Shown: positions 6,686 through 43,977 of the stretch, piece by piece
How the letters are laid out: each line of letters starts with the position of its first letter
Position numbering within the stretch: the first letter of the stretch is position 1
Source: Siderastrea siderea
Lineage: Eukaryota; Cnidaria; Anthozoa; Scleractinia; Rhizangiidae
Length of the DNA: 64,000 nt
NCBI GenBank assembly: GCA_964030785.1
Contig: OZ034969.1
Coordinates: 34,890,601-34,954,600 of the forward strand
Reading direction: 5' to 3'
Program-made: the position numbers and the translations under genes
The notes under the pieces: generated by a model
What the model saw: the letters and a program-made list of their open reading frames with translations, nothing else
Databases searched by the model: none
What the model was told of the DNA's origin: nothing

Positions 6686-6700
6686 CGACAGTCCCAGAAG
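6686..6700 (+). CDS. Predicted microexon 1 (15 nt, phase 1-1)
   Basis: The acceptor is a long pyrimidine-rich tract ending TTCAACAG and the donor is GTAAGTAA. The exon is CGACAGTCCCAGAAG. Read in phase 1 (the first two bases complete a codon begun upstream) it gives T-V-P-E between split codons. An internal CAG after six bases offers a second acceptor that would give 9 nt, still a multiple of three. It is the first cassette visible; the upstream exon is not in the window. No RNA support is available. Confidence 0.55.
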
Positions 6701-6976
6701 GTAAGTAACGTTCTTTGTTACACTGATGTTTTCTTCAGTTAATTTAGGCATCTTGTGCTTGTGTGCAGTGCCCTTAAATCATAAAATCACATATCAGTTG
6801 TTGTTTTTGTTGTTGTAATTTTATTTTATTTGTATTTGATATTTATATTTCCATATGCTATTGCTTTCGTGGAGCCTGCTTTCACTTTCACATCACAGGA
6901 GCCCCAAACTAATCCTGTCAGTCAGCTATGATTTTTTTTCTGTACTGACACTCTGCTCCCCATTACTGCTCGTCAG

Positions 6977-7024
6977 ACTCAGGCGTCACCAGAGCATCGC
7001 CAGAGCAGCTAGTTTCTACCATAG
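6977..7024 (+). other. Possible second cassette in the unit (48 nt)
   Basis: A CTCGTCAG acceptor-like site and an ATAG/GTAAAA donor-like site bound 48 nt that are open in phase 1 (S-G-V-T-R-A-S-P-E-Q-L-V-S-T-I between split codons). Copies lie in units 2-6 (for example 8976-9023). In the old copy near 26590 the donor is not kept, so this may be chance. Much weaker than the microexon calls. Confidence 0.2.
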
Positions 7025-8000
7025 GTAAAACGTCGTAAACGTTGCAATCCACTACACTTATCGAACGTCATAAGAGCTCTTGACTTAGATGTCAAAAATA
7101 TATCTTTTTTTGGTAGTTTTATTTCCTCTGGGTTGAAAACGCAGATCGTTCTTTTCTGAAATAGAACAATAGAAAAAACAGTGGCTTACCTTTGGGAATA
7201 ACCCCTTTTGTTTAACAGATTGACTATTTGATTATTTTTAAAAAAGAAAAAAAATGGTAAATTAAGTGTACCACAAAGAGTTAATAGCGACTGATCATGC
7301 CTATTGTTAGATGCTGAAAAACACGAAAAACTCCTGACAAACGCCACGATAGTGTTTTCCTGTTGTTTATTTAAAACGAAGAACTCGGTTGATTTAGCAG
7401 CGAAGAGCTTGATACGGGGGACGAACCCTCCAGACTAGCTGCCAGGTCACACAGTCTGACGAGTATAAAGTGTTAGTAATGGGGACCAGACTACTGTATT
7501 GCGCAATAACACTAATGGCTGAAAAGAGAAGGGTTTGTTTGAGAATCAGGAATCTGTTTAGCTCCAGGAGTAAAAGCTTGCAGAAATTAATTTTTCCAAC
7601 ATAATCAGAATGTTCCGCGCCTTAAAACTTCGAAATTAGCACGACAACGTAAAAAGAACTGTTAGAAGATAGTTTCCTTAGACTTTCCTTTAAAACAATC
7701 CTAAAATCACGGCTTTTCCTTGTGCTTACGTTATTTTAAGGTTTGATGTGCAATGTAAGTAATATATAGATTTAGCCAAGCCTAAAAGCGGAGCCCCACT
7801 TTTTTTTAATTGCTGAAAGTTATTCATTTCTTTAAAGTGATTACCAAAACAAGAGAAAAAGAAAAAAATTAAAGAAATAATTGCTCCCCCTGCGGTTCGC
7901 ACCGACGAGTCGCTAAACCGCCGAACTTATAAAGGAGAATACCAACCACTGCACAACATCTGCTAAGTTGTCAAGTGAGCAATTCATTTTCATACTTAAC

Positions 8001-9999
8001 CTGTTGTTTAATGATTGAGCTGGATTGAGATAAACACGGGTGTTTTTCTTAGGGAAATGTGTACGGACCCCTGCAAAAACCAACAAGACAGAGAAACAAT
8101 AGACAAACTGACCTAATTTTACTAACAATAGACCAACAGACAATTGACTAACAAAAGACGGATCGAAACGCACCAATCACGTTTTACAGCCAATAACATC
8201 ACGGCTTAACTGACAGACAACATCGCGAGTTCGTCGACCAATCAGGACTACAACCAGAGACTTATAACTTATACTGACGATTCACAGTTCACGTGACTCT
8301 GATGATGACTTCCGCTCAGGTTGCCGACTCGTCAGTCAATGTAACCACCAACAGTCCTACTTCTCAGGACTACACTCACTCGGACGATCATAATTTACCG
8401 ACGTATGATATGTCTCCTGGGTTTAAACCATTTATAAAATTACAGATTTACAGTTTTAGAGATGTACATTCATAAGTTTTTTCTGAGGACAAACGCACCC
8501 GAATAAAGCTCCGAAATATTTTTGGGTCCGAAAGATTTGCAGGACTTTTGATGAAAGAACACCTAGTAATTCTGTGAGGTCTCCGCAGTTAGGCTAGCCT
8601 AGTATTAGTATTGCTAATAAATATATCTAGAATGTAACATTTCTTTAATTTCTTAATTCCTATCCTGTTCGTCACGTTCAATAGCCGGAGCCTTACCAGG
8701 TAACTAAGGTTCTTTGTTACATTGATGTTCTCATCAGTTAATTTAGGCATCTTGTGCTTGTGTGCAGTGCCCCTAAATCATAAAATCACATATCCGTTGT
8801 TGTTTTTGTTATTGTAGTTTTATTTTATTTGTATTTTATATTTATATTTCCATATCCTATTGCTTTCGTGGAGCCTGCTTTCACTTTCACATCATAGGAG
8901 CCCCAAACTAATCCTGTCAGTCAGCTATGATTTTTTTTCTGTACTGACACTCTGCTCCCCAGTACTGCTCGTCAGACTCAGGCCTCACCAGAGCATCGCC
9001 AGAGCAGCTAGTTTCTACCATAGGTAAAATGTCGTAAACGTTGCAATCCACTACACTTATCGAACGTCATAACAGGTCTTGACTTACAAGTTTAAAAAAA
9101 TATTTTTGTGGTACTTTTATTTCCTCTGGGTTGAAAATGCAGATTGTTCTTTTTTGAAATAGAACAATAGACAAAACATTGGCTTACCTTTGGGAATAAC
9201 ACCTTTTGTTTAACAACTTGATTATTTGATTATTTTTAAAAAAGAAAAAAATGATAAATTAAGTGTACCACAAAGAGTTAATAGCGACTGATCATGCCTA
9301 TTGTTAGATGCTGAAAAACACGAAAAACTCCTGACAAACGCCACGCTAGTATTTTCCTGTTGTTTATTTAAAACGAAGAACTCGGTTGATTTAGCAGCGA
9401 AGAGCTTGATACGGGGGACGAACCCTCCAGACTAGCTGCCAGGTCACACAGTCTGACGAGTATAAAGTGTTAGTAATGGGGACCAGACTACTGTATTGCG
9501 CAATAACACTAATGGCTGAAAAGAGAAGGGTTTGTTTGAGAATCAGGAATCTGTTTAGCTCCAGGAATAAAAGCTTGAACAAATTAATTTCTGCAACATA
9601 ATCAGAATGTTCCGCGCCTTAAAACTTCAAAATTATCACGACAACGTAAAAAGAACTGTCAGAAGATAGTTTCCTTAGACTTTCCTTTAAAACAATCCTA
9701 AAATCACAGCTTTTCCTTGTGCTTACGTTATTTTAAGGTTTGATGTGCAATGTAAGTAATATATAGATTTAGCCAAGCCTAAAAGCGGAGCCCCACTTTT
9801 TTTTTAATTGCTGAAAGTTATTCATTTCTTTAAAGTGATTACCAAAACAAGAGAAAAAGAAAAAAATGAAAGAAAAAATTGCTTCCCCTGCGGTTCGCAC
9901 CGACGAGTCGCTAAACCGCCGGAATGATAAAGGAGAATACCAACCACTGCACAACATCTGCTAAGTTGTCAAGTGAGGAATTCATTTTAATACTTAAAC
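8001..9999 (+). repeat. Tandem unit 2, contains microexon 2
   Basis: Same landmark order as unit 1 with period 1998 (GGCTAGCCTAG landmark at 8590). Its sequence around the exon (AATAGCCGGAG) is closest to unit 6, suggesting block duplication or gene conversion and not simple stepwise growth. Confidence 0.9.
8685..8699 (+). CDS. Predicted microexon 2 (15 nt, phase 1-1)
   Basis: The acceptor ends CAATAG; the donor is GTAACT, weaker than the GTAAGT of most sister cassettes. CCGGAGCCTTACCAG gives G-A-L-P in phase 1. It differs from microexon 6 at only two positions, making the two the closest pair in the array. Confidence 0.5.
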
Positions 10000-12007
10000 T
10001 GCTGTTTATTGATTGCAGCTGGATTGAGATAAACACGGGTGTTTTTCTTAGGGAAATGTGTACGGACCGCTGCAAAAACCAACAAGACAGAGAAACAATA
10101 GACAAACTGACCTAATTTTACTAACAATAGACCAACGGACAATTGACTAACAAAAGACGGATCGAAACGCACCAATCACGTTTTACAGCCAATAACATCA
10201 CGGCTTAACTGACAGACAACATCGCGAGTTCGTCGACCAATCAGGACTACAACCAGAGACTTATAACTTGTACTGACGATTCACAGTTCACTTGACTGTG
10301 ATGATGACTTCCGCTCAGGTTGTCGACTCGTCAGTCAATGTAACCACAAACAGTCCTACTTCTCAGGACTACACTCACCCGGACGATCGTAATTTACCGA
10401 CGTATGATATGACTCCTGGGTTCAAACCATTTATAAAATTACAGTTTTAGAGATGTACATTCATAAGTTATTTTCGGACGAGAAACGCACCCGAATAAAG
10501 CTCCGAAATATTTTTGGGTCCAAAAGATTTTCAGGACTTTTGATAAAAGAACACCTAGTAATTCTGTGAGGACTCCGCAGTTAGGCTAGCCTAGTATTAG
10601 TATTGCAAATAAATATATCTAGAATGTAACTTTTCTTTAATTTCTTACTTCCTATCCTGTTCGTCATGTTCAACAGCGACAGAACCACCACGAGCCCCAC
10701 CACGTAAGTAACGTTGTTTGTTACATTGATGTTTTCATCAGTAAATTTAGGCATCTTGTTTTTGTGTTCAGTGCCCTTAAATCATAAAATCACATATCCT
10801 CCATTGTTGTTTTTGTTGTTGTAGTTTTATTTTATTTGTATTTTATATTTATATTTCCATATGCTATTGCTTTCGTGGAGCCTGCTTTCACTTTCACATC
10901 ACAGGAGCCCCAAACTAATCCTGTCAGTCAGCTATGATTTTTTTTCTGTACTGACACTCTGCTCCCCAGTACTGCTCGTCAGACTCAGGCGTCACCAGAG
11001 CATCGCTAGAGCAGCTAGTTTCTACCATAGGTAAAACGTCATAAATGTTGCAATCCAGTACACCTATCGAACGTCATAAGAGGTCTTGACTTAGATGTCA
11101 AAAATATTTTTTTTGGTAGTTTTATTTCGGATCCTCTGGGTTGAGAATGCAGATATTTCTTTTTTGAAAAAGAACAATAGACAAAACAGTGGCTTACCTT
11201 TGGGAATAACACCTTTTGTTTAACAACTTGATTATTTGATTATTTTTAAAAAAGAAAAAAATGATAAATTAAGTGTACCACAAAGAGTTAATAGCGACTG
11301 ATCATGCCTATTGTTAGATGCTGAAAAACACGAAAAACTCCTGATAAACGCCACGCTAGTATTTTCCTGTTCTTTATTTAAAACGAAGAACTCGGTTGAT
11401 TTAGCAGCGAAGAGCTTGATACGGGGGACGAACCCTCCAGACTAGCTGCCAGGTCACACAGTCTGACGAGTATAAAGTGTTAGTAATGGGGACCAGACTA
11501 CTGTATTGCGCAATAACACTAATGGCTGAAAAGAGAAGGGTTTGTTTGAGAATCAGGAATCTGTTTAGCTCCAGGAATAAAAGCTTGAACAAATTAATTT
11601 CTGCAACATAATCAGAATGTTCCGCGCCTTAAAACTTCAAAATTATCACGACAACGTAAAAAGAACTGTCAGAAGATAGTTTCCTTAGAATTTCATTTAA
11701 AACAATCCTAAAATCACAGCTTTTCCTTGTGCTTACGTTATTTTAAGGTTTGATGTGTAATGTAAGTAATATATAGATTTAGCCAAGCCTAAAAGCGGAG
11801 CCCCACTTTTTTTTAATTGCTGAAAGTTATTCATTTCTTTAAAGTGATTACCACAAAAAGAGAAAAAGAAAAAAATGAAAGAAAAAATTGCTCCCCCTGC
11901 GGTTCACACTGACGAGTCGCTAAACCGCCGGAATGATAAGGGAGAATGCTAACCACTGCACAACATCTTCTAAGTTGTCAAGTGAGGAATTCATTTTAAT
12001 ACTTAAA
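10000..12007 (+). repeat. Tandem unit 3, contains microexon 3
   Basis: Period about 2 kb, with the GGCTAGCCTAG landmark at 10584. It carries small changes private to the unit, such as a GGATCC insertion near 11129. Confidence 0.9.
10677..10703 (+). CDS. Predicted microexon 3 (27 nt, phase 1-1)
   Basis: The longest young cassette. The acceptor ends CAACAG and the donor is GTAAGTAA. Phase 1 gives T-E-P-P-R-A-P-P, a proline-rich insert. The exon contains an internal CAG six bases in, so a 21-nt version would also keep frame. The extra 12 nt look like a local duplication of a CCACCACGAGCC-type motif, showing cassettes can change length in multiples of three. Confidence 0.55.
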
Positions 12008-13571
12008 CTGTTGTTTATTGATTGCAGCTGGATTGAGATCAACACGGTGTTTTTCTAAGGCAATGTGTATGGACCGCTGCAAAAACCAACAAGACAGAGA
12101 AACAATAGACAAACTGACCTAATTTTGCTAACAATAGACCAACGGACAATTGACTAACAAAAGACGGATCGAAACGCACCAATCACGATTTACAGCCAGT
12201 AGCATCTTGGCTTAACTGACAGACAACGTCGCGAGTTCGTTGACCAATCAGGACTACAACCAGAGACTTATAACTTATACTGACGATTCACAGTTCACTT
12301 GACTCTGATGATGACTTCCGCTCAGGTTGTCGACTCGTCAGTCAGTGTAACCACAAACAGTCCTACTTCTCAGGACTACACTCACCCGGACGTTCGTAAT
12401 TTACCGACGTATGATATGACTCCTGAGTTCAAACCATTTATAGAATTACAGATTTAGAGATGTACATTCATAAGTTATTTTCTGACGACAAACGCACCCG
12501 AATAAAGCTCCGAAATATTTTTGGGTCCGAAAGATTTTCAGGACTTTTGATAAAAGAACACCTAGTAATTCTGTGAGGACTCCGCAGTTAGGCTAGCCTA
12601 GTATTAGTATTGCTAATAAATATATCTAGAATGTAACATTTCTTTAATTTCTTACTTCCTATCCTGTTCGTCATGTTCAACAGGAAGAACCTCACCACGT
12701 AAGTAAGGCTCTTTGTTACATTGATGTTTTCATCAGTTAATTTAGGCATCTTGTTTTTGTGTGCAGTGCCCTTAAATCATAAAATCACATATTCTCCATT
12801 GTTGTTTTTTTTGTTGTAGTTCAATTTTATTTGTATTTTATATTTATATTTCCATATGCGATTGCTTTCGTGGAGCCTGCTTTCACTTTCACGTCACAGG
12901 AGCCCCAAACTAATCCTGTCAGGCAGCTATGATTTTTTTTCTGTACTGACACTCTGCTCCCCAGTACTGCTCGTCAAACTCAGGCGTCACCAGAGCATCG
13001 CCAGAGCAGCTAGTTTCTACCATAGGTAAAACGTCATAAACGTTGCAATCCACTACACTTATCGAACGTCATAACAGGTCTTGACTTAGATGTCAAAAAT
13101 ATATTTTTTTTGTGGTAGTTTTGTTTCCTCTGGGTTGAAAATGCAGATAGTTCTTTTTTGAAATAGAACAATAGACAAAACAGTGGCTTACCAGTGGGAA
13201 TAACACCTTTTGTTTAACAAATTGATTATTTGATTATTTTTAAAAAAAGAAAAAAAGGATAAATTAAGTGTACCACAAAGAGTTAATAGCGACTGATCGT
13301 GCCTATTGTTAGATGCTGAAAAACACCAGACTAGCTGGCTTTTAGCCAAACCTTAAAAGCGGAGCCCCACATTTTTTTAATTGCTGAAAGTTATTCATTT
13401 CTTTAAAGTGATTACCAAAAAAAGAGAAAAAGAAAAAAATGAAAGAAAAAATTGCTCCCCCTGCGGTTCGCAGCGACGAGTCGCTAAACCGCCGGAATGA
13501 TAAAGGAGAATACCAACCACTGCACAACATCTGCTAAGTTGTCAAGTGAGGAATTCATTTTAATACTTAAA
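12008..13571 (+). repeat. Tandem unit 4, internally deleted, contains microexon 4
   Basis: GGCTAGCCTAG landmark at 12590. The unit lacks about 430 bp between GCTGAAAAACAC (near 13326) and TTAGCCAAACC (near 13345), including the GTCACACAGTCTGACGAG block, so the period falls to about 1.58 kb. Confidence 0.9.
12684..12698 (+). CDS. Predicted microexon 4 (15 nt, phase 1-1)
   Basis: GAAGAACCTCACCAC lies between CAACAG and GTAAGTAAGG. Phase 1 gives R-T-S-P. It differs from microexon 5 at 6 of 15 positions, while the roughly 95 bases upstream differ at only about 2. Confidence 0.55.
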
Positions 13572-15569
13572 CTGTTGTTTATTGATTGCAGCTGCATTGA
13601 GATAAACACGGGTGTTTTTCTTAGGGAAATGTGTACGGACTGCTGCAAAAACCAACAAGACAGAGAAACAATAGACAAACTGACCTAATTTTACTAACAA
13701 TAGACCAACGGACAATTGACTAACAAAAGACGGATCGAAACGCACCAATCACGTTTTACAGCCAATAACATCACAGCTTAACTGATAGACAACATCGCGA
13801 GTTCGTCGACCAATCAGGACTACAACCGGAGACTTATAACTTATACTGACGATTCACAGTTCACTTGACTCTAATGATGACTTCCGCTCAGGTTGTCGAC
13901 TCGTCAGTCAATGTAACCACAAACAGTCCTACTTCTCAGGACTACACTCACTCGGACGATCGTAATTTACCGACGTATGATATGACTCCTGGGTTCAAAC
14001 CATTTATAAAATAACAGATTTACAGTTTTAGAGATGTACATTCATAAGTTTTTTTCTGACGACAAACGCACCCGAATAAAGCTCCGAAATATTTTTGGGT
14101 CCGAAAGATTTTCAGGACTTTTGATAAAAGAACACGTAGTAATTCTGTGAGGACTCCGCAGTTAGGCTAGCCTAGTATTAGTATTGCTAATAAATATATC
14201 TAGAATGTAACATTTCTTTAATTTTTTACTTCCTATTCTGTTCGTCATGTTCAACAGCAAGAGGCCGACGACGTAAGTAACGTTGTTTGTTACATTGATG
14301 TTTTCATCAGTTAATTTAGGCATCTTGTTTTTGTGTTCAGTGCCCTTCAATCATAAAATCACATATCAGTTGTTGTTTTTGTTGTTGTAGTTTTATTTTA
14401 TTTGTATTATATATTTATATATCCATATGCTATTGCTTTCGTGGAGCCTGCTTTCACTTTCACATCACAGGAGCCCCAAACTAATCCTGTCAGTTAGCTA
14501 TGATTTTTTTTCTGTACTGACACTCTGCTCCCCAGTACCGCTCGTCAGACTCAGGCGTCACCAGAGCATCGCTAGAGCAGCTACTTTCTACCATAGGTAA
14601 AACGTCGTAAACGTTGCAATCCACTACACTTATCGAACGTCATAACAGGTCTTGACTTAGAAGTCAAAAATATTTTTTTGTGGTAGTTTTATTTCCTCTG
14701 GGTTGAAAATGCAGATAGTTCTTTTTTGAAAAAGAACAATAGACAAAACAGTGGCTTACCTGTGGGAATAACACCTTTTGTTTACCAAATTGATTATTTG
14801 ATTATTTTTAAAAAAGAAAAAAACGATCAATTAAGTGTACCACAAAGAGTTAATAGCGACTGATCATGCCTATTCTTAGATGCTGAAAAACACGAAAAAC
14901 TCCTGACAAACGCCACGCTAGTATTTTCCTGTTGTTTATTTAAAACGAAGAACTCGGTTGATTTAGCAGCGAAGAGCTTGATACGGGGGACGAACCCTCC
15001 AGACTAGCTGCCAGGTCACACAGTCTGACGAGTATAAAGTGTTAGTAATGGGGACCAGACTACTGTATTGCGCAATAACACTAATGGCTGAAAAGAGAAG
15101 GGTTTGTTTGAGAATCAGGAATCTGTTTAGCTCCAGGAATAAAAGCTTGAACAAATTAATTTCTGCAACATAATCAGAATGTTCCGCGCCTTAAAACTTC
15201 AAAATTATCACGACAACGTAAAAAGAACTGTCAGAAGATAGTTTCCTTAGAATTTCATTTAAAACAATCCTAAAATCACAGCTTTTCCTTGTGCTTACGT
15301 TATTTTAAGGTTTGATGTGTAATGTAAGTAATATATAGATTTAGCCAAGCCTAAAAGCGGAGCCCCACTTTTTTTTAATTGCTGAAAGTTATTCATTTCT
15401 TTAAAGTGATTACCAGAAAAAGAGAAAAAGAAAAAAAATGAAAGAAAAAATTGCTCCCCCCGCGGTTCGCACCGACGAGTCGCTAAACCGCCGGAATGAT
15501 AAAGGAGAATACCAACCACTGCACAACATCTGCTAAGTTGTCAAGTGAGGAATTCATTTTAATACTTGA
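13572..15569 (+). repeat. Tandem unit 5, contains microexon 5
   Basis: Full-length unit, GGCTAGCCTAG landmark at 14166. The TTTAGCAGCGAAG...CTGAAAAGAGAAG block at about 14961-15100 looks base-for-base the same as in units 2 and 3, showing recent duplication or gene conversion. Confidence 0.9.
14258..14272 (+). CDS. Predicted microexon 5 (15 nt, phase 1-1)
   Basis: CAAGAGGCCGACGAC lies between CAACAG and GTAAGTAACG. Phase 1 gives the basic peptide R-G-R-R. It differs from microexon 1 at 7 of 15 positions although the 75 bases before the two exons differ at only 3. Confidence 0.55.
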
Positions 15570-15840
15570 ACTGTTGTTTATTGATTGCAGCTGGATTGAG
15601 ATAAACACGGGTGTTTTTCTTAGGGAAATGTGTACGGACCGCTGCAAAAACCAACAAGACAGAGAAACAATAGACAAACTGACCTAATTTTACTAACAAT
15701 AGACCAACGGACAATTGACTAACAAAAGACGGATCGAAACGCACCAATCACGTTTTACAGCCAATAACATCACGGCTTAACTGACAGACAACATCGCGAG
15801 TTCGTCGACCAATCAGGACTAAAACCAGAGACTTATAACT

Positions 15841-17315: not shown

Positions 17316-17330
17316 CCGGAGGCATACCAG
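17316..17330 (+). CDS. Predicted microexon 6 (15 nt, phase 1-1)
   Basis: CCGGAGGCATACCAG lies between CAATAG and GTAAGTGAGG. Phase 1 gives G-G-I-P. It is the last cassette of the young block and a close sister of microexon 2. Confidence 0.55.
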
Positions 17331-23301: not shown

Positions 23302-23316
23302 AAGAAAGTGCAAATA
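23302..23316 (+). CDS. Predicted microexon 7, acceptor altered (12 or 15 nt)
   Basis: Aligned with the young cassettes, the acceptor CAACAG has become CAACTG, but the donor GTAAGTAATG is intact. An AAG at 23302-23304 offers a replacement acceptor, giving a 12-nt exon (23305-23316) instead of 15. Both are multiples of three. Phase 1 of the 12-nt form gives S-A-N. The upstream TTACTTCCTTTTCATGTTCG tract is recognisably that of the young units. May be weakened or inactive. Confidence 0.35.
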
Positions 23317-23335
23317 GTAAGTAATGTGTTTGTTA

Positions 23336-24554: not shown

Positions 24555-26196
24555 TTTTTTTAATTAATTACTTGCAAGCACAAAAAAGAAAAACAACGCA
24601 TACAGTACAAACACTAAAGCACATAACTAAACAATACAGCAGAGTAAAAAGTAAGTGATCCTAATTACAATGGTTTAGGTGCATTACCAAAATTACAAAG
24701 AGTTAGTCAGTCGAGGGGAGGGGAAGTAACATTTTGAAAGTTAATTGGGTTTGCCATAGTTGCATACATATACAAAATATACTTAAACAATATTTTCTAT
24801 ATATGAGCATAACAGTCCTTCAGTCAGGGGGACAGGAGATAAACTCTTTATAAACATTCTGCAAAAGGAATCCATTTTTTTGTGTCACCCACTTTTGTCT
24901 CTAATACATATCTTGATTTAACAAGACGTAGAAAAGATGTGAAATTTGGTGAGGTTTCCTCTAATCTGGCTTGCCATATATGATACCGCGCTAGCAACAA
25001 GATATAGTTTAATTGAAGTGAATATTTAGAATGAGGAACCGGCCTCAGGCCCAAAGCTGTTGTATTCAATAAAGTGAATTCGCCTGTTATCGAGAGGTTG
25101 TCCTGAAGCCAGTCAGTCACTCTTTTCCAAAAGGAGGATGTAACGTGACATGACCAAAAAAGGTGGATTAATGACTCTGAGGCACTGTGACAAAAAGTGC
25201 AATTTTCGTTTTCCTTTCTTCCTATTTTAAAAAGGAACTTGTTAGTTGGTATGCATCTATGCAAAAGTTTAAACTAGAACTCGATCAGTTTGGTGCTTTT
25301 AGTACAACTTGGAGCCATGAGGTACGCTTGTTCCCAGTTGAAAGTAGTTTTTTCATCTAAAAAATTGCAATCCTGAAACCATTTGTTTTGGCTGTTGCTC
25401 GGGGTTAGACCTTTTGTACTGATTAGCTTTTTGTAAATTATCGGGCCTGGTCTTTGACTTTTTATAATCTTATCGCAGAGTGTTTCAGAGTTGCCTCCTC
25501 TAATCTCAGCAGCTCCGGTAGCGGTTTTTCGAAGGGACTTTACAGCTGATAGTAAGCCATAGAAACTAAGAGGACGTAATTTTATGTCATACTTTGACGC
25601 AAGAGCATTAAGGGACAGAAATCCTTTGTTTTCCGTCCTTTGAAGGTGTTTAACTTTTGTTATACCTTTTTCAAGCCAATCCTTAAAAAAAATTGGCTTG
25701 TTATCAACCCTTATTAAAGAGTTGAACCATAAACTCTGTTCGCGAAAATTGATTTCAGAAGTTACTTGGCGCTCAAAATTGGTTTCGGCCCAGTATTCTA
25801 ATATTTCCTTAAGGAAGGGATCCGTGACCTTTATCATTTTCTTTGTGTCATTAACGTTAAGGTTACCCCGGAAGAGATTTTCACAGCCATAGTTCTTGAG
25901 TTCCATATCGAAGAGGAGTTTCCATTTTCCTTTGTTGGTCGTGTCCAAGTACTTTTTTACCCAAGTTGTTTTGAGAGATTTGTTAAAAGAGCAGAGATCA
26001 ATCATTTTCAGACCTCCATTTCTGGGATCGTTGATCATAACTTTTCTCTTTATTTTGTCACCTTTGCCATTCCATAGGAAATGGTAGAACATGTCATTTA
26101 TTTCTTTTATAGCATGGTGGTTAGAACGCAGCGGCGCTAATAAATAAACCAACTGTGATGCGGCCAGTGTCTTAACTACGGTGATTTTTCCTTTTC
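24555..26196 (-). mobile_element. 5'-truncated LINE, L1/Tx1-like
   Basis: Contains only the 3' part of a LINE ORF2 on the minus strand, inserted in the old array unit whose sequence resumes near 26440. A short T run near 24551-24560 may be the remnant of the poly(A) tail. There is no reverse transcriptase core, so the copy was dead on arrival. Confidence 0.75.
24848..26152 (-). pseudogene. LINE ORF2 C-terminal region, one internal stop
   Basis: The translation has the NGKGDKIKRKV and DPRNGGLKMIDL segments that follow the reverse transcriptase domain in L1-group elements. It ends with a zf-RVT-like segment (CTFCHSASESLIHLFWSC, with the CxxC...H...C pattern). One in-frame TAG at 25274-25276 falls in IEF-stop-FKLLHRCIPTN. 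The two halves are in the same frame, so a single nonsense change is the only break seen in the retained part. In the family this residue is usually Gln, so CAG to TAG is the likely change. The start is a 5' truncation and not a true initiation site. It lies antisense to the predicted microexon gene, within one of its introns. Confidence 0.85.
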
Positions 26197-28862: not shown

Positions 28863-28877
28863 CGAGTGCAAGTTCAG
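28863..28877 (+). CDS. Predicted microexon 8 (15 nt, phase 1-1)
   Basis: The acceptor follows TCTTTCTTTTTCTTCTTTTG and GTGTTTGCAG; the donor is GTAAGC. CGAGTGCAAGTTCAG gives S-A-S-S in phase 1. This acceptor type (TGTTTGCAG) is shared by microexons 10 and 11 and defines an older subfamily of cassettes, distinct from the CAACAG type of the young block. Confidence 0.5.
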
Positions 28878-30239: not shown

Positions 30240-30252
30240 ATTCTGCTGCCCC
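30240..30252 (+). pseudogene. Decayed microexon copy
   Basis: Positioned where an old unit should carry its cassette, after TCTCCTTCTTATTTAG. The donor has become GTCAAT and the enclosed segment is 13 nt, not a multiple of three, so inclusion would break the frame. Its downstream flank (AAGATAAACGAATTTACT) still matches other units. Confidence 0.4.
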
Positions 30253-34280: not shown

Positions 34281-34318
34281 AGCTCCGCTTTTAGGCTTGG
34301 CTAAATCTATATGTTATT
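34281..34318 (+). repeat. Dispersed repeat fragment (CTCCGCTTTTAGGCTTGGCT)
   Basis: The same segment, inverted, sits in every young unit (for example 7769-7800, ATATAGATTTAGCCAAGCCT) and, direct, at 48609-48646. It marks a mobile sequence shared by the array and its surroundings. Confidence 0.7.
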
Positions 34319-34617
34319 TAACAACAGCTTTAACAACAGTGGTGGAGAACAATAAGAAATATTTTGTTACAGTGTCATTTTTCTCAGAAAAATTTATGCA
34401 GTTTTTTCTCGTCAAGTGGTCCGTTCTCTAATTATTCTGCAATTGAAGGTTACTCTTAAACTACTGAGCTTTGCAGCTTCTTTATTCAGGATTTGTGACA
34501 ATTTCAGCCAAAGGTTCGCCTAAATTGCAGGAAAGAAATGTTTAAAGGATCTTTGAATGTAAATGGGAAGAAACTGTGACTTAATTAATCAGTAATATTG
34601 AGATTTGTCTGCCTTAA

Positions 34618-35266
34618 GGACGTTCGCGCGAAAAACTTCCACAATACAGATTTTTTTTCATACTTTGGCTACAGTCAGATAATAAGTTACCTATGTCAGA
34701 AATGCAAAAAAATTGAGGGGTCACCGACTTCGTTTTCAAAATAAAGCGCGTGGAAAACTACCCTAATTTCGACAAATCGGCCCTCGCAACTCGACATAGC
34801 CTCAATGCTTGTTGGTTTAAAAATATTAAAAATTATTCGCTGTAGACCCACTTTCTTAGCCAAACGTTATTTAAGTGGGTCTGTCAAGTAAACAATGTGA
34901 GCTGGTGTCATCCTTTTAGTTAAACTCATCCTCTAAGATGGACTTTTGCGAACACCGTGCAGCTACAATAATAGCATAATTCGATGATGCGAGGGCAGAA
35001 AAGTTGAAAAAAATCAAACTTCCACAATACAGATTTTCTTTAATTTTTCTCAAAATGTAGATAATTGACAGACAAAGTGATTTATCAAAAGAAAATATGG
35101 GGTCACCGAACATTTAAGAGAGTTAAACTCTTGCATAGATACTAAAGTGCCTACTAGCGCTATATATCTCCACATTTCTCCAACAGCGCGCGCGCGCTCA
35201 ATGCATGACGTGGCACTGAATTGCATGCGCAGTAAGGATGCGCAGAAACAATTAGCGCGAACGTCC
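34618..35266. mobile_element. TTAA-flanked MITE, 649 bp
   Basis: GGACGTTCGCGCG at the left end and its reverse complement at the right end, with TTAA at 34614-34617 and 35267-35270. The 3' subterminal region has two GATGCGCAG/CATGCGCAGT motifs. No coding frame. The end sequence and the GCGCAG motifs resemble the element at 44830-45226. Confidence 0.85.
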
Positions 35267-35671
35267 TTAACGATTGAGTTTGATGCCAAATGCATTCAGT
35301 CGTTCGTACGTTGGTTCGTTTGTTCCTTCATTCATTCATTCACTTATTTCTGTTTTTAACGTGGAACAAAGTGATTTCGTTTCTTTGATTAAGTAGTCTC
35401 TCTTCTCCTGTATTTTTGGAAAGGTTTTTTTTCTTTCTTTTTTTTTTTCACGTTTACATCACAGGCACTCCAAGCTCTTTTTGGGAAATTAGAGTTGAGA
35501 AATTGGATTTGTTGTAGACTTTGAATCTTTTTATAGATCTTTTACAGTTGGATAAATTGCCTCTCTTCTTGTTGATTTGGTCTTTGTGTGCAAATGGAAT
35601 TTTAAAATTCGCTTTAGCATGTACAATTTCTGAACTACTTATCTTTCTTTTTCTTCTTTTGATGATCGCAG

Positions 35672-35686
35672 AGACCTCGAATGCAG
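35672..35686 (+). CDS. Predicted microexon 9 (15 nt, phase 1-1)
   Basis: AGACCTCGAATGCAG follows GATGATCGCAG and precedes GTAAGA. Phase 1 gives T-S-N-A. The acceptor is ambiguous (CAGAG), but use of the second AG would give 13 nt and break the frame. The 170 bases before it match those before microexon 11 (TAGATCTTTTACAGTTGG and GGAATTTTAAAATTCGCTTT). Confidence 0.5.
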
Positions 35687-35759
35687 GTAAGAAGTGTATG
35701 TGTTAGGTAATCTAATTGGTCACTTATTAATTTTAAGAATAAACTAATCCTGTCCATAT

Positions 35760-38279: not shown

Positions 38280-38297
38280 CGTCAAGCAGCGAACGTC
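38280..38297 (+). CDS. Predicted microexon 10 (18 nt, phase 1-1)
   Basis: CGTCAAGCAGCGAACGTC lies between TGTTTGCAG and GTAAGTAATG. Phase 1 gives S-S-S-E-R. It is one codon longer than most cassettes. An internal CAG (after 9 nt) would give a 9-nt form, also in frame. The downstream intron start (GTATATGTCGATATTCTTAT) matches that after microexon 11. Confidence 0.55.
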
Positions 38298-38411
38298 GTA
38301 AGTAATGTATATGTCGATATTCTTATTAATTACTCAACAATTTTAGGATAAACAAATCCAGGTGCCAGCTAGAGAAAGTATTAGCTTTGTTAGGCTAATT
38401 TCGAATTGCCT

Positions 38412-38547
38412 TGAGCCTCCCTATCAAAGCGAGGCAAGGTGTACATCCTTTCATATGAAAAAGAGTTTTATTTGCATTAAATGAAAACCCATTTTTATAA
38501 TTATGAAAGATTGTGTACTTAGCCTCGCTTTGACAAGGAGGCTAAAA
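38412..38547. mobile_element. Short MITE (GAGCCTCC...GGAGGCT)
   Basis: Terminal inverted repeats TTGAGCCTCCCTATCAAAGC on the left and GCTTTGACAAGGAGGCTAAA on the right enclose about 90 bp of AT-rich DNA. No coding capacity. Confidence 0.65.
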
Positions 38548-38869
38548 CCAATTCAGAGATGGCCAATTTTTTCTCGCACGTGCTCCTTCGAATGCAAATT
38601 TGTACCTGTTTTAAGTTTAGTTCATCTTTTAGCCCGCTTGAACTAGCTTCAAGTTTCTCGTAGCTGTTTTGTCGGTGATGAAGGAAAACCGAATAAGAAT
38701 CCTGTGTTCTTTATCTCGTGTCACATGTCAATGGCAGTGTCGTCTGCAATGTTGACAACTGTCGGAGATGTGCACTCTACCGAGGTTGATTGACAAGTGA
38801 GCTGTCAGTGCACGTGGCCAGGCCAAGTCCCTCTTAATAATATACCGGAACTTCCTCTTTAATTTATAT

Positions 38870-39948
38870 TTGATTTTAAATTATGTACATAATCTTGGCG
38901 ATACAAATCAATTTAAGAATGGAAAGCGAAGGAAAAGGTTATTACACCTTTTGGCTTTTATTACCAGGAAATAAATTTTAATTAGGGTCCAAAACTCTTT
39001 CATTAAAATGAAGTTGTGATCATTTTAGCAAACTAAACAAGCATTTCAATTTTTTGCGTCAACAATAGGTAGTTTAATCTAGGCATGGGTGGCACTAGAC
39101 TAAAGTTGATTGCAGGGTCGCATTCATGGGATATAATCGTTATTGAATACAACAACAACAACAACATTTTATTTGCATTCCAATTACAAATGGTATTGCA
39201 CATAGAAAAAAGAAAAATACACCTAACGTCAACTCAAGTATACTGGAAACCCAAACTGCGTCCCGTTGAATTGAAGGTTTAGCAATTATCAAATAATGAT
39301 TGTTATTCTTCAAAAACTCTAAAAAAGCATTTCTTGTTGAGCATGTTGTATGAAAGAAACGAATGTTGATTTCGACTGTTTCGATCCAACGGTACCGTAC
39401 CAATTCTTTCGCGAACAGCTAAACGTAACAAATACTACATTTTGACGCATTTTAAACAGGAATTGGGCGTGGACTGAAGGAGATGCACGCATATTTGATT
39501 GTAGCAAGCGTTTCCGTGGATTTTTCCGGCCGTTCGAGGTTTTTTTGCGCTTTTTGACGGCCCAAAAATTGGGGTGTGCGCAAAACTCGCCCCAATATTC
39601 GCGCGTTCAGAAAGCTAAAAGTGCTTCAAACCTGCGAAAAGCCCTACGGAAACGCTTGCTGCTCAGGCTAATTTGATTGTGTCCTGAATGTTCTGTTTTT
39701 TCTTCCATTGACAAGCGTTGACAGTTGCCGCTGTGATTCCTATTGTTCAGCTCGATTTTTTGAAAATCTGCCTGCTGAATGTTTGAAAACTTCTTTTTAG
39801 ATCTTTTACAGTTGGCAAAGTTATTCCTCCTCTCGTTGATTTAGTTTTAAACTTATTATAAATGCATGTGGAATTTTAAAATTCGCTTTAACAATTTCTA
39901 AATTCTGTTTTTTACTTGTCTTTCGTTTTCCGCTTTTGATGTTTGCAG
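38870..39948. other. Old array unit, predicted intron
   Basis: 38870-38990 matches 28640-28760 and 31370-31490. The rest shows a CAA microsatellite at about 39149-39165 and, from 39780, the conserved approach to a microexon. The minus-strand open frames at 39140-39507 lack recognisable content. Confidence 0.5.
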
Positions 39949-39963
39949 CGTCGCTACCAATAC
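39949..39963 (+). CDS. Predicted microexon 11 (15 nt, phase 1-1)
   Basis: CGTCGCTACCAATAC lies between TGTTTGCAG and GTAAGTGATG. Phase 1 gives S-L-P-I. It is the last cassette of the array before the exons that fix the reading phase. Confidence 0.55.
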
Positions 39964-40574
39964 GTAAGTGATGTTTATATCGATATTCTCATTATTCACT
40001 TAACAATTTAAGGATAAGCGAATCCACTGGTTTTACGCGAAATAACATTTGAACAGAAATCCTTATGTTGGGGTATGTAGAGTAAAGCAGAAGGTTGACA
40101 AATACAATGAATTGTTGTGCTTTGCACTTGCTTTGTACTTTGGATTAAGATTAGTCAGTAAAAAGAATATCCAGTCTGAATAGGCTCAAAACAGTGTGCT
40201 CTATGTTAAGTTCTCTTCTCTTAATTTTGGCTACGATATGCGGGTAGGGAGGGAGGGTCATTAAACTTAATTTTCTTTTTTAACGCCTCGTTTATTTTGA
40301 GTAACAGGTTTTGAGTCGTTGAACAGTTCAACAGTTTATGAACAAGGTCACTCTTGAACTAATTTACTTAAGTTTCTTTATATTTTAATTTTACTCGTTC
40401 ACTTTATGAAGCTCCTTGAGAAGAAAATCATTGCTTTGAGGAAGGGTACCTGGCCAAAGAAGACAAAAGTATGAAGGCCCCGCGAAACACCCTATTTAAG
40501 TGAAGATTTCAGATTCGAACAAGAAACATGTATGGAAAAGAAGGGATCACATTTCACTTCATTTTTTGCGCGAA

Positions 40575-40612
40575 TTTTGTCTTAATCTATCTTAATCTAA
40601 TCTAATCTAATT
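40575..40612 (+). repeat. (AATCT)n simple repeat
   Basis: Four or more imperfect copies of TAATCTA-type pentamers within the predicted intron between microexon 11 and the 45-nt exon. No gene is seen in the rest of this intron (39964-41042). Confidence 0.7.
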
Positions 40613-41042
40613 TATATATTTATTTATTTATTCTTTGAGAAATTTTTACCCTATTCAGACCGGGCTTTTTTCGCCCTCCTGGGACGTCCCCCCCCCCTCC
40701 CCTTCCTATGTAACTTTAAAACCGCTTACGCTGTGGCCACCAAATCTGCACAGGATAGTGTACGCGTTAATTCTAATCACTACAGATACTATGATGTCAC
40801 TGTGACGTGTATGACGTCATCATGACGCCGTTTGTTTCTCAATGTTTCACTGAGAAGTTCTAAAGCAATAAATTTACTGCATACTGTACCTGAAGGAGTA
40901 AAACTACTTTTGTTAGGTATAAAGGGTCATAAGCCACGCACCTCTTCGGAACCTGTAATTTTATTGGCTTCCTATATCACGCACCTCTATTGTTTTAAGG
41001 GCTAGGGTCATTGTTTTATTGTTTGTTCTTTTGTCTTCTCAG

Positions 41043-41087
41043 CCAATCCTGTTAAGCCTTCCGATAGGTGCGTACCGCCTCTAAAGG
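41043..41087 (+). CDS. Predicted exon 12 (45 nt, phase 1-1)
   Basis: The acceptor follows TTGTTCTTTTGTCTTCTCAG and the donor is GTATGT. The 45 nt contain a stop in phase 0 and in phase 2 but are open in phase 1, giving N-P-V-K-P-S-D-R-C-V-P-P-L-K between split codons. This fixes the phase of the whole array upstream. An earlier GTGCGT (after 25 nt) could also act as a donor but would break the frame. The exon is not part of the repeat units, so it is probably constitutive. Confidence 0.6.
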
Positions 41088-41992
41088 GTATGTACAATAT
41101 GTTTTCTGACTGTATATTTTTGGAAGATATGAAATTATGCAGATACATTTCATATAAGAGATAAAATGGCCATTTTGGTGTCCGCCATCTTGAATTTCCC
41201 TAACTTCATCTGCTTCATTAATAAACAATAAAATGAAACCAGTTGATTGTAAAAAGTTTATTTAATCAATTAACAATGTCATAAACTTTGTGGCGAATAG
41301 TGAATTGCGAGCGAGAAATCACCTTTTTTACCAGTTAAGGCCGCCATCTTAGATTTTTACGTTTAAAATTTCATGTTTTCCTCAAATTAGTACTAAATTT
41401 CTTTTTTTAGTTGGCGGTTATTTCTAAATGATAAATTGTAGTTACAATTAATGTAAAAATTGAATCGTAAAAAAAGAATCGTGATTTTTTTTAACGTGCC
41501 TGTCACCAATTGGTTGCCATGGAAACGTCAAGTTTGTTGGACCCAGTTAAATTTTAGGAAAAGTAACAAAATTTAATGGTAATAGCATGAACGGTTACGA
41601 AATTACACGACTTCAAAGTTGAGGCGTGCCTCAAAAGCCCCCTCCCGGTCTGAATGGGGTTAAAGCCGACGCTAGGAATGTGTTAGAATAACGTGAAGAA
41701 TAAGACACCACGTCTTTTACACACACTCGACGCACTTAAAATAACTTTAAAACGATGTGACTGAACACTGTTAAATCGTGGTAAATCGGTATATATTTCG
41801 CTCCTCGAGCCTCGTCAGCCGTCCGCCGTATAAGCACAGAGGACAGGGAAGCTACCAGCTTCCTTGGGAGCAGTTCGAGGTCAACTTGATTAAAAGCACT
41901 TTACAAAGAATATGGCCTGTTTCTAATAAGGAGATCTTTCTGATGTTGCCAGGAATTTGCTCATTGTACTTCTCTAAGTCCTTTTTGGTTTT

Positions 41993-42035
41993 CATCATCA
42001 TCATCATCATCATCATCATTATTAATTATGATTAT
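41993..42035 (+). repeat. (ATC)n / (ATT)n microsatellite
   Basis: About eight ATC units followed by ATT-rich sequence. It lies in the predicted intron before exon 13 and creates the Ile-rich end of a spurious open frame. Confidence 0.9.
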
Positions 42036-42108
42036 TATTGATGAACTTTTATGCCTTGCACTTTTTTTATTTTCACTTTTTTTCTTTCTCTTGTTCTTTT
42101 TTTTTTAG

Positions 42109-42144
42109 CCAGGAGTTCCCGGAATGTAGAGAATAATCTTGAAG
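42109..42144 (+). CDS. Predicted exon 13 (36 nt, phase 1-1)
   Basis: A run of pyrimidines ending TTTTTTTTAG precedes it and GTAAGTGC follows. Phases 0 and 2 contain TAG and TAA respectively; phase 1 is open and gives R-S-S-R-N-V-E-N-N-L-E between split codons. Joined to exon 12 the split codon becomes GCC (Ala), and to exon 14 GAA (Glu). Two successive exons that are open only in the same phase are the best sequence support for the model. Confidence 0.65.
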
Positions 42145-43447
42145 GTAAGTGCTTTGTTTCCTTCGAGGTGTTAAGGTCGTGAATCGAGTAGCGCAAGAAA
42201 ACCAACCACATCCAATTTCATACCGTAAATCACCCGGTTATAAGCCCTGGCCTATGCAGCTTCGTAAGAATTTTGTTGGTTACCAAGGACAAAATGTTGT
42301 GGTAATGAACTATCATTTTAGCCGGTTAGTGTAATTTGATTTTTAAAAAAAACTATGAGGAGATGTTGTATTGCTTATATCTCGGACGAGGTACAACCGG
42401 CAGTGTGACTATAACAGGGTGGAGTTATGACTGGGTTTAACGGCATTTCGTCGGCCGATACTTACTCACTCATATTTGTCTGTTTTTGAGAAAGTTTTCC
42501 TAGCATTCCTATTATCATTTGAGTAATCATCCAGTAAGTATTTTCGTTTTTCCTTTTTTTTTCTTTCTTAATTTCGCAAGTTAAATCGAATAGTGGGCTG
42601 TTGAACCGTAACCTCATTTCAAATGTCGAATGTTACGTCCAACACAGCGCTGGGTGTTATGGCATAAACTTAAAAGCGCCGCTGCTCCAAAGCAAAGCAA
42701 AGCGCACAAGCATTTATCACGGGTTGCAAAAGGCGGACGCCGCATCATAACGATGTGTAGTACGCATGTACCGCTGAAAGAGGAATCTTACTTCGCGTAA
42801 AAGCTCTTCGCTCTATTTCACGTCGCATATGAAGAAGAAAGGTTAATGAATGATGACGCTATACAGAGGCTCAAGGTGACTGATTGTATTAATCAATTCA
42901 ACCCTTTGAAGTTTGAAACCAAAAAAGGAACCTGTTGTTGACCGTCGTGGGCTAATTTCTTTTTGCACCCACTTCAAGATGGCGGCCGATCAACGTTTTT
43001 ACCAGAGAAAAAGGAAACAGTTGTTAAAACAACTCAAAATTTGGTTGGATTCAACTCAGTTCTCCGCTGCTTCTCTAAATTTACACTACCGAAACGTTAG
43101 TTTCTCCAACTAGCTTCTTTTAAACGTGTATATCGTGACGCGTTGCATTATACGAACACTGGTCGTTTTCTTATGATAATCAATCAAATTTGTCTAAACA
43201 TAAATTGCGACCTATAACTGAAGCCAAACAGTAAAACAATGCTTAATTTTAAATGTTTGACGCTCTATGAATCTGAAAACGTAACAGGTTCTTCGAAAAA
43301 CGCAAAATGTCCGCCATCTTGAAGTGGGCGTAAAAAGAAAATTGGCCCGTCGTGGTTGATGACAGCTTTTCTCAAATAGCAAAACTGAAGTCTTGTATCG
43401 CGTACTGTGGGTTTTAACATTTGCCTTTCCTTTTCCTTTCCTAAAAG
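42145..43447. other. Predicted intron 13, with MITE relic
   Basis: 42225-42445 has diverged TTATAAGCCC and AACCGG motifs resembling the MITE at 829-1265. 42955-42985 and 43305-43330 carry a short inverted repeat around CACTTCAAGATGGCGG, so 42930-43360 may be another decayed inverted-repeat element. No gene is seen. Confidence 0.4.
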
Positions 43448-43601
43448 AAAGGCGTGGAGGCGTCCTGACTGAAAATGATCCAGCATGGAAAGCAGGGGGA
43501 ACCACCTTACAAGGTCACAGCACTCAGCAGTTCATCACAGCTGAGCCAATCAAAGTTGATCCTTCCAAGAAAGTTGAGCTGGTGCTGAGGCTTGTCGCAA
43601 G
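43448..43601 (+). CDS. Predicted exon 14 (154 nt), constant C-terminal region
   Basis: The acceptor is CCTTTCCTTTTCCTTTCCTA followed by AAAG; the donor is GTAATA. Entered in phase 1 it is open throughout and leaves in phase 2. The peptide begins E-R-R-G-G-V-L-T-E-N-D-P-A-W and later reads QQFITAEPIKVDPSKKVELV. It alternates polar and hydrophobic residues as in beta strands. I do not recognise the family: no transmembrane segment, cysteine pattern or catalytic motif is visible. An alternative acceptor eight bases farther on (GAAAG) would not accept exon 13 in frame. Confidence 0.65.
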
Positions 43602-43895
43602 GTAATAAATATGGTATAGCACGACTTCACAAACATGGGCTTTAACTCAGGCCCGCACTCACACTCTTAGAAACTAAATTCTATTAGTGGCCTGATAAGC
43701 CTAAATCCTGATTTAAACGTTTGTCTTTCCTTTCTTGTAAACCAATACTGGAAGGAAAGGAAACACTGCACCTGTCCCAATAATAGCGTGAGAAAATTTC
43801 ACATTCCCAAAAACTGTTCCGGGAGTTTAGATGATCTGTGTGTGCCAGTTATCAAAAACGCTAATATAAAATTTTCATTCTCTTGTCGTCCTCAG

Positions 43896-43977
43896 AGAAG
43901 ACGAGACAGACGTTGTATTCCCCAAAGATGAGTTCAAGCCGTTGTCGACTCTTTATCCACCAGCTGTGCCAGAGTAG
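43896..43977 (+). CDS. Predicted terminal exon 15 with stop codon
   Basis: The acceptor TCTTGTCGTCCTCAG precedes it. Joined to exon 14, the split codon is AGA (Arg) and the frame reads EDETDVVFPKDEFKPLSTLY followed by PPAVPE and TAG at 43975-43977. The tail is acidic and then proline-rich, with no GPI-like hydrophobic end. Together exons 12-15 encode about 105 residues. An ATTAAA at 44192-44197 is a possible poly(A) signal. Confidence 0.65.

What the first reader, a model, noticed from the sequence alone, without database searches (positions are those of the whole stretch)
6686..43977. A modular gene built from an array of 11 phase 1-1 microexons
Seen: eleven AG/GT-bounded cassettes of 15, 15, 27, 15, 15, 15, 12-15, 15, 15, 18 and 15 nt, one per repeat unit, all multiples of three. 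They are followed by exons of 45 and 36 nt that are open only in phase 1, an exon that accepts phase 1, and a terminal exon with a stop. Any subset of cassettes keeps the frame. Known: symmetrical microexon sets generate protein variants in schistosome MEGs; tandem alternative exons do so in insect Dscam. Inference: this is a comparable diversity generator in a cnidarian, inserting short Pro/Ser/Thr/Arg peptides before a constant C-terminal region. I know of no description of this locus.
Basis: partly seen in the sequence, partly recalled or inferred. Interest (0 to 1): 0.92.

Follow-up and report, generated by a model that had tools for sequence, protein, structure and literature searches.

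The report
Hypervariable microexon array, coral DED-ubiquitin-like gene
A predicted coral gene for a cell-death/ubiquitin-like signalling protein carries about twenty tiny in-frame exons whose coding letters differ far more than the introns around them, which suggests that evolution keeps rewriting, and splicing may reshuffle, one flexible part of the protein.

Summary
The core observation holds. Ten of the 11 cassettes are AG/GT-bounded, frame-neutral microexons; the one near 23.3 kb has lost its canonical acceptor. The array is larger than the window shows: ten similar units and one divergent 30-nt unit lie upstream, making 21 cassettes in a ~111-kb gene.

Upstream exons encode a death effector domain (Pfam E 8e-23), a conserved beta-domain and ubiquitin-like domains. 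The 20 named homologues found are all stony corals. A tandem paralogue just upstream carries its own, different microexons (15, 18 and 24 nt).

Main new result: the A-type microexons differ about eight times more than their introns (0.33 against 0.04 per site). In phase 1, and only there, nonsynonymous change exceeds synonymous 4.6-fold, while domain-coding exons compared between the two genes are constrained (0.15-0.44). This supports real coding exons under diversifying selection.

Two corrections. The 45-nt exon lies in a small transposon-like insertion and is probably not a conserved exon. The protein looks intracellular (inferred), unlike schistosome MEG products.

Best reading: a Pro/Arg-rich linker of variable content. 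Alternative inclusion is plausible but unproven; no RNA from this species could be examined.

The parts
6686..6700 (+). microexon, 15 nt, A-type, core peptide TVPE
   Evidence: AG/GTAAGT; unit flanks 88-96% identical to a reference A-type unit
8685..8699 (+). microexon, 15 nt, A-type, GALP (donor GTAACT)
10677..10703 (+). microexon, 27 nt, A-type, TEPPRAPP
   Evidence: identical exon also at C4:34877929 upstream
12684..12698 (+). microexon, 15 nt, A-type, RTSP
14258..14272 (+). microexon, 15 nt, A-type, RGRR
17316..17330 (+). microexon, 15 nt, A-type, GGIP
23302..23316 (+). degenerate cassette: acceptor CAACTG instead of CAACAG; 12-nt alternative 23305-23316 only
   Evidence: probably a dead or dying copy
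28863..28877 (+). microexon, 15 nt, B-type, SASS
35672..35686 (+). microexon, 15 nt, B-type, TSNA
38280..38297 (+). microexon, 18 nt, B-type, SSSER
39949..39963 (+). microexon, 15 nt, B-type, SLPI
40927..41081 (+). small insertion with TAAAGGGT at both ends, inside a dispersed repeat; contains nearly all of the proposed 45-nt exon 41043-41087
   Evidence: argues against that exon
42109..42144 (+). 36-nt exon, open only in phase 1 (ARSSRNVENNLE)
   Evidence: 36-nt counterpart in the paralogue by position and splice sites (by eye), sequence only half conserved
43448..43601 (+). C-terminal domain exon, phase 1 in, phase 2 out (..DPAWKAGGTTLQGHS..LRLVAR)
   Evidence: pN/pS 0.25 against the paralogue
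43896..43977 (+). terminal coding exon with stop (EDETDVVFPKDEFKPLSTLYPPAVPE)

Best explanation
The array is the variable part of a stony-coral gene of about 111 kb (C4:34,823,291-34,934,577 of the source assembly). The gene encodes an adaptor-type protein, probably intracellular: an N-terminal death effector domain, a conserved beta-domain, ubiquitin-like domains, a linker, and a conserved C-terminal domain ending in ..GGTTLQGHS..PLSTLYPPAVPE. The linker is written largely by 21 microexons of 15-30 nt that fit phase 1-1, so any of them can be included, skipped, duplicated or lost without breaking the frame. The A-type units of about 1.6-2 kb have spread recently by tandem duplication and recombination; introns stay alike while the microexon is under diversifying selection for amino-acid change. 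SHOWN (sequence): the exon-like cassettes, frame neutrality, gene and domain context, tandem paralogue, hypervariability, phase-1-specific excess of nonsynonymous change. INFERRED: that they are transcribed and spliced in, that cassettes are used alternatively, that the Pro/Arg-rich peptides (..PPRAPPPRAPP.., RTSP, TEPL) act as short linear motifs for partner proteins, and that the driver is conflict (pathogen or symbiont).
For: Splice signals and symmetry. Array extends upstream: 10 more A-type exons. Exon hypervariability: 14 fifteen-nt A exons differ at 0.334 per site against 0.043 mean and 0.138 maximum in 562 flank windows; 5.68/15 against 0.044/nt over 79 pairs. Frame: pN/pS 4.62 in phase 1 against 0.72 and 0.78 in phases 0 and 2; 0.1% of 1,000 column permutations reach it; leaving out any one of the 8 exon sequences gives 3.9-6.9. 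Domain-coding exons between the two genes: pN/pS 0.15-0.25 for E1, E4, E5 and the two C-terminal exons, 0.44 for E6. B-type 15-mers (5 exons): 0.69 exon, 0.11 in 34 nt upstream, 0.22 in 10 nt downstream. DED 8.3e-23, ubiquitin 3.3e-8, Rad60-SLD 2.0e-6. Paralogue with separate microexons. Beta-domain found in only these two genes. Coral homologues. Linkers in Acropora and Stylophora contain repeated modules. Linker of homologue P0006 modelled without structure, pLDDT under 50 over residues 423-555, though the conserved C-terminal domain also scores under 50 there.
Against: No RNA of this species. Five of the 16 A exons are identical, so not every copy is diversifying. In 29 of 79 pairs at least one flank window equals or exceeds the exon count; some pairs (e.g. 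-14243 with -8740) align better with gaps in the exon, so indels as well as substitutions contribute. A plain column permutation of third-position diversity gives only P about 0.02. In a whole-unit alignment seven separate windows scored higher than the exon, at places where units differ by indels and the alignment is forced. Outside the array the spacer exons are not constrained either: E2 0.81, E3 0.97, and the 36-nt exon has 6 nonsynonymous and 0 synonymous changes in 8 codons. The E6 donor is weak (GTTAGA), and gene 2 shows no clear third or fourth ubiquitin-like domain. 5,000 bases just upstream of the window are withheld, so the count of cassettes is a minimum.
Confidence: 0.77

Rival explanations
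1. The microexons are real and fast-evolving but are all spliced in constitutively. The array is an evolving, length-variable Pro/Arg-rich spacer, not a combinatorial isoform generator.
For: Good, near-uniform donor and acceptor sequences in almost every unit; other coral linkers also consist of repeated modules inside single protein models. Nothing in the sequence requires skipping.
Against: 10 of 22 homologue names read 'isoform X..'; exons this short are often hard to define and skipped (recalled knowledge). Neither is decisive.
Confidence: 0.4
2. A non-functional tandem repeat or mobile element with fortuitous splice-like sites inside a long intron.
For: Units are tandem repeats of about 1.6-2 kb; one copy near 23.3 kb and the single A-type copy in the paralogue have broken splice sites; mobile-element-like sequence is present around.
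Against: Frame-specific excess of nonsynonymous change, lengths divisible by three in both A and B types, exon segment confined to this locus among the matches scored.
Confidence: 0.04
3. The microexons are targets of a local mutational process (hypermutation, or templated replacement during unit recombination), and selection only filters the result.
For: Units can have left flanks 0.3% different and quite different exons (-8740 and 12684; their flanks as a whole differ by 2.3%); for 13 of 16 units the nearest relative by left flank is not the nearest by right flank.
Against: Changes avoid third codon positions, which a mutational process would not do. No enzyme or template was searched for.
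Confidence: 0.05
4. Concerted evolution: gene conversion keeps intron flanks alike, while exon differences are kept by balancing selection for different peptides, so the exons are old rather than fast.
For: Mosaic flanks; identical exons in separate units with differing flanks, e.g. the 27-mer at -12671 and 10677 (4 of 150 upstream and 30 of 150 downstream, ungapped, so an indel may inflate the second).
Against: Conversion tracts would have to skip 15 nt repeatedly; it still needs selection on the exon, so it is a variant of the best reading.
Confidence: 0.15

Closest known systems
Schistosome micro-exon genes (MEGs)
   Same: Most of a coding region is made of very small symmetrical exons, allowing variants by alternative splicing; accelerated evolution (PMC4350168, passages read).
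   Different: [quoted passage not shown] Here the protein has DED and ubiquitin-like domains, and the A-type exons sit in tandem units 88-96% alike.
Arthropod Dscam-hv variable exon clusters
   Same: Tandemly duplicated alternative exons between constant exons.
   Different: Dscam-hv exons are mutually exclusive and encode ecto- and transmembrane parts (PMC3364881, passages read; no Dscam-like orthologue was detected there in two cnidarians). Here exons are 15-30 nt, frame-neutral and can in principle all be joined.
Aphid bicycle genes
   Same: Many small internal exons of one phase (almost all phase 2) and strong positive selection (PMC9168663, passages read).
   Different: Different proteins (putative plant gall effectors); in the passages read the small exons are not described as tandem copies of one unit.
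Sea anemone SA8 toxin genes and tandem venom genes
   Same: Cnidarian genes of 3-5 microexons with one highly variable exon in Actinia; low intron variability is noted for clustered rattlesnake venom genes (PMC10210398, passages read).
   Different: Whole-gene duplicates encoding toxin-family peptides; not an exon array within one gene.
DED/TRADD-N adaptor proteins of invertebrates
   Same: Cnidarian proteins with DED fused to variable C-terminal regions, in a predicted immunity/apoptosis setting (PMC8195603, passages read).
   Different: No TRADD-N match appeared for the pieces scanned with Pfam; ubiquitin-like domains and a microexon-coded linker instead.

Membership tests
Death effector domain protein | Pfam DED above gathering score | tested here: met
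   80.9 bits against cut-off 35.9, (exon E1, upstream of the window)
Ubiquitin-like domain protein | Pfam ubiquitin / Rad60-SLD above gathering score | tested here: met
   33.6 against 25.4 and 27.9 against 23.8 bits, (exon E6); ubiquitin-chain matches for the model of homologue P0006
Coral DED-beta-UBL-linker-C-terminal family | same domain order and C-terminal GGTTLQG..PLSTL motif | tested here: met
   not every homologue holds all parts
Schistosome-type micro-exon gene | most coding exons tiny and symmetrical | tested here: inconclusive
   21 cassettes against ten other exons of 36-588 nt that carry the domains
Schistosome-type micro-exon gene | secreted product (signal peptide) | tested here: inconclusive
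   the first exon found starts MAFAQDENRL and runs straight into a DED, as in homologues; judged by eye, no signal-peptide program was run
Schistosome-type micro-exon gene | sequence homology to a MEG family | not tested
   no MEG sequence was fetched
Dscam-hv-like variable exon cluster | mutually exclusive inclusion | not testable with these tools
   no RNA
Dscam-hv-like variable exon cluster | variable exons encode Ig-domain parts | tested here: not met
   4-9 whole residues per cassette
Alternatively spliced diversity generator | different cassette subsets in transcripts of one animal | not testable with these tools
   no transcripts of this species were available

The most novel reading that the evidence does not exclude
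Corals possess an intracellular, splice-based repertoire: a death-effector adaptor that also carries tandem ubiquitin-like domains uses about 20 frame-neutral hypervariable microexons (at most 382,464 distinct ordered combinations) to present changing sets of short Pro/Arg-rich motifs. The exons are held under diversifying selection in a conflict with microbes, viruses or symbionts. This would be an immune or recognition diversity generator that works on a flexible linker inside the cell, unlike Dscam, MEGs or gene-family expansions.
Probability: 0.27. Interest if true: 0.93.

Novelty: new variant of a known kind. Interest (0 to 1): 0.8.

Why it matters
Exons that change faster than their own introns, with the excess in one reading frame only, are a strong sign of an arms race. 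Here the target is 15-nt exons in a cell-death/ubiquitin-like adaptor of corals, animals whose immunity and symbiosis matter for reefs. The case would show that a few codons, placed in symmetrical microexons, can serve as an evolvable and possibly splice-selectable motif library. It also gives a concrete, cheap test (long-read cDNA over one locus) of combinatorial microexon splicing outside bilaterians.

Tried and rejected
(1) Fortuitous splice sites in a satellite or mobile element: rejected. A ~107-bp part of the intron (14064-14176) does match dispersed places elsewhere, but the exon-bearing part did not among the 40 of 99 candidates scored. (2) The 45-nt exon as a constant exon: rejected or doubtful. 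(3) Pfam and PDB searches with the C-terminal 78 and 105 residues: nothing. (4) A first microexon scan with a generic acceptor matrix missed the A-type exons because their pyrimidine tract scores low; replaced by homology-based extraction and a B-type matrix. That matrix was built from the 14 B-type exons, so finding them is by construction; 4 further hits above the threshold, with lengths not divisible by three, were dropped as secondary donors of the same exons (3) or a low-scoring site (1). (5) Whole-unit alignment gave higher windows outside the exon, in stretches where units differ by indels; pairwise local alignments were used instead. The two 27-nt exons were left out of the 15-mer statistics. 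(6) Counterparts in gene 2 for the paralogue's third and fourth ubiquitin-like domains: not found. (7) AlphaFold of homologue P0017: DED confident, beta-domain moderate, C-terminal domain not; the beta-domain had no Pfam match and its identity stays open. (8) Literature: nine searches listed no title or abstract start that describes this gene family or array (one search listed 20 of 136 papers); PMC12960093, held neither 'death effector' nor 'microexon'. Only open-licence PMC papers are held.
Full report
COORDINATES. Negative numbers are bases upstream of the window's first base; genome position = 34,890,600 + x on contig C4 of the window's own assembly (831 Mb). 'Gene 2' is the gene of the finding, 'gene 1' its upstream neighbour.

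1. THE OBSERVATION. The sequence shows 10 of the 11 cassettes as described: AG, an exon of 15, 15, 27, 15, 15, 15, 15, 15, 18 or 15 nt, then GTAAGT or a close relative. The cassette near 23.3 kb has CTG where AG should be. The last three exons (36, 154 and 82 nt, ending in TAG) are as described; the 36-nt exon reads openly only in phase 1 (by eye). The 45-nt exon does not hold up. It lies in an insertion with an 8-bp repeat at both ends, inside another dispersed repeat that is continuous in the 7 other copies inspected. In a whole-genome search with the C-terminal protein, 62 of 70 listed matches (one of them the window itself) start at the first residue of its peptide; they are short and weak, E 0.012 to 5.3.

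2. THE ARRAY IS LARGER. 100 kb of upstream sequence contains ten more units of the same kind, with exons at -28809, -26850, -24868, -23300, -17807, -16235, -14243, -12671, -10668 and -8740, and a more distant 30-nt one at -33456. A-type units are 88-96% identical to the reference stretch. With the 6 A-type and 4 B-type exons of the window this gives 21 cassettes. 5,000 bases next to the window are withheld, so more may exist. A whole-genome search with a 301-nt A-type unit scored 40 of 99 candidates: 16 are these, one is in gene 1 (its donor is broken), and the other 23 match only an intron stretch before the exon. The B-type flank has 8 matches, all in these two genes; it missed some B-type copies, so this is a lower bound.

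3. THE GENE. Exons further upstream in the same orientation complete the gene: E1 -67309..-66979, E2 -64010..-63879, E3 -62266..-62093, E4 -61056..-60772, E5 -58874..-58490, E6 -56931..-56344 and E8 -49297..-49101. E8 changes the phase from 2 to 1, as the array needs, and contains a KTSFLSKIKDK motif like those in some other coral linkers (by eye; tblastn E 0.08 for P0023). E1 is a death effector domain (Pfam 80.9 bits, cut-off 35.9); E6 has ubiquitin and Rad60-SLD matches above cut-off. E4-E5 encode a beta-domain with no Pfam match. Weak points: the E6 donor is GTTAGA, and gene 2 shows only two clear ubiquitin-like repeats in E6. The model rests on sequence and comparison, not on transcripts.

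4. THE PARALOGUE. Gene 1 lies just upstream; its coding part ends near -84.1 kb, about 17 kb before E1 of gene 2. It has counterparts of the domain exons and the C-terminal exons (80-89% protein identity for the latter) and a 36-nt exon in the matching place (by eye). Its microexons are different: GATCCTTGGATGACC (15 nt, four copies) alternating with 24-nt exons (three copies), AATCCCTGGATGACCTTG (18 nt, two copies) and TGCACCGGTGTGCAA. All 14 B-type exons of both genes have lengths divisible by three with their main donor and lie on the gene strand; the matrix built from them gave no hit above threshold on the other strand. The beta-domain was found in these two genes only (4 of 4 candidates scored).

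5. HYPERVARIABLE EXONS IN QUIET INTRONS. Among 14 A-type 15-mers (8 distinct sequences) the mean pairwise difference is 0.334 per site. The flanks average 0.043, and the highest of 562 fifteen-base flank windows reaches 0.138. In pairwise local alignments of 79 pairs with unlike exons, the exon has 5.68 differences in 15 on average and the flanks 0.044 per base. In 50 of 79 pairs no flank window reaches the exon's count; overall 807 of 104,843 windows do. The pairs are not independent, and in some the exon aligns better with gaps, so indels contribute. A forced whole-unit alignment put the exon eighth among the best separate windows, because units differ by indels further out. For B-type 15-mers (5 exons, 10 pairs) the figures are 0.69 exon, 0.11 upstream and 0.22 downstream.

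6. SELECTION IN ONE FRAME. In phase 1 the 8 distinct exons have pN 0.552 and pS 0.119 (ratio 4.62); in phases 0 and 2 the ratios are 0.72 and 0.78. Of 1,000 column permutations 0.1% reach 4.62. Leaving out one exon sequence at a time gives 3.9 to 6.9. A simpler permutation of third-position diversity gives P about 0.02. Three of five third positions do not vary at all. Between the two genes, pN/pS is 0.25 (DED), 0.24 (E4), 0.23 (E5), 0.25 (C-terminal exon) and 0.15 (last exon, only 3 differences), and 0.44 for E6. The spacer exons are looser: E2 0.81, E3 0.97, and the 36-nt exon has 6 nonsynonymous and no synonymous change in 8 aligned codons. So the domains of both genes are constrained, the spacers drift, and the microexons are pushed to change. 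Five identical RAPP exons show that not all copies take part.

7. HOW THE ARRAY EVOLVES. For 13 of 16 units the nearest relative by the left 300 bases is not the nearest by the right 300 bases. Recombination thus mixes units; two broken copies suggest birth and death. The array's spread postdates the split from gene 1: flanks about 4% against synonymous differences of 0.27-0.53 in most constant exons and 0.11 in the short last exon (inference).

8. RELATIVES. A search of 5.8 billion proteins gave 22 matches: 20 named ones, all stony corals (Oculina, Montipora, Acropora, Stylophora, Pocillopora, Porites), and 2 unnamed. Only the 7,995 candidates sharing most words were scored. Ten of the 22 names say 'isoform X..'. 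A search with the C-terminal region added three. Linkers differ strongly between species and several contain repeated modules, for example three RASIPRDELRN.DVIAQG modules in an Acropora and two GSCQVPPLRGAIPPGK in Stylophora. One unnamed protein (P0022) has the beta-domain, ubiquitin-like repeats and the C-terminal motif without a DED. A model of homologue P0006 (mean pLDDT 66) has confident ubiquitin-like repeats, a moderate beta-domain, and a linker with pLDDT under 50 at residues 423-555; the conserved C-terminal domain is also under 50, so low confidence alone does not prove disorder. Its best PDB matches are structures with linear ubiquitin chains, but with low TM-scores (0.21 of the query), so this speaks for repeat type, not for arrangement.

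9. MECHANISM. Most likely: the primary transcript is spliced so that a variable or fixed set of microexons joins E8 to the 36-nt exon, giving a Pro/Arg-rich linker between the ubiquitin-like part and the C-terminal domain. Any junction keeps the frame (506 of 506 junction codons free of stops). If every cassette were optional, 382,464 distinct ordered strings would be possible; this is an upper bound, not an observation. That the peptides are docking motifs, that the protein is intracellular, and that pathogens or symbionts drive the change, is inference from the DED/ubiquitin context and the selection pattern.

10. COMPARISON. It works like schistosome MEGs in using small symmetrical exons (PMC4350168), like Dscam-hv in tandem exon duplication (PMC3364881), and like bicycle genes in single-phase small exons under positive selection (PMC9168663); passages of each were read. 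Membership in none of these was shown. The domain context resembles the cnidarian DED proteins of PMC8195603 (passages read). Nine literature searches listed no account of this family or array.

11. VERDICT. A real and unusual gene feature with strong sequence evidence for coding and diversifying selection; alternative splicing itself remains to be shown.

Noticed in passing
window 40645-41705: Dispersed repeat with about 40 matches genome-wide, split by a ~150-bp insertion (40927-41081) with an 8-bp repeat at both ends and short inverted ends (hAT-like by recall); this insertion supplies most of the proposed 45-nt exon.
   Followed up: yes
window 46658-47887 (+), 25274-26194 (-), 62753-63673: Open frames that look like LINE-type reverse transcriptase pieces (by eye); not compared with any library.
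   Followed up: no
C4 about 34,738,000-34,768,000 (L044, L043, L022, L021): Open frames resembling retroelement pieces (gypsy-type and BEL/Pao-type by recall) in or beside gene 1's introns; seen as separate pieces only.
   Followed up: no
P0022 (unnamed ENA contig): A protein with the same beta-domain, ubiquitin-like repeats and GGTTLQG C-terminal motif but no DED; its origin is unknown, and the core architecture may predate corals.
   Followed up: partly
P0017, P0018 (Pocillopora, Stylophora): Family members with DED, beta-domain and C-terminal domain but no ubiquitin-like match listed.
   Followed up: partly
window 14064-14176: Part of the A-type unit's intron matches dispersed places elsewhere in the genome at 75-79% identity.
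   Followed up: partly
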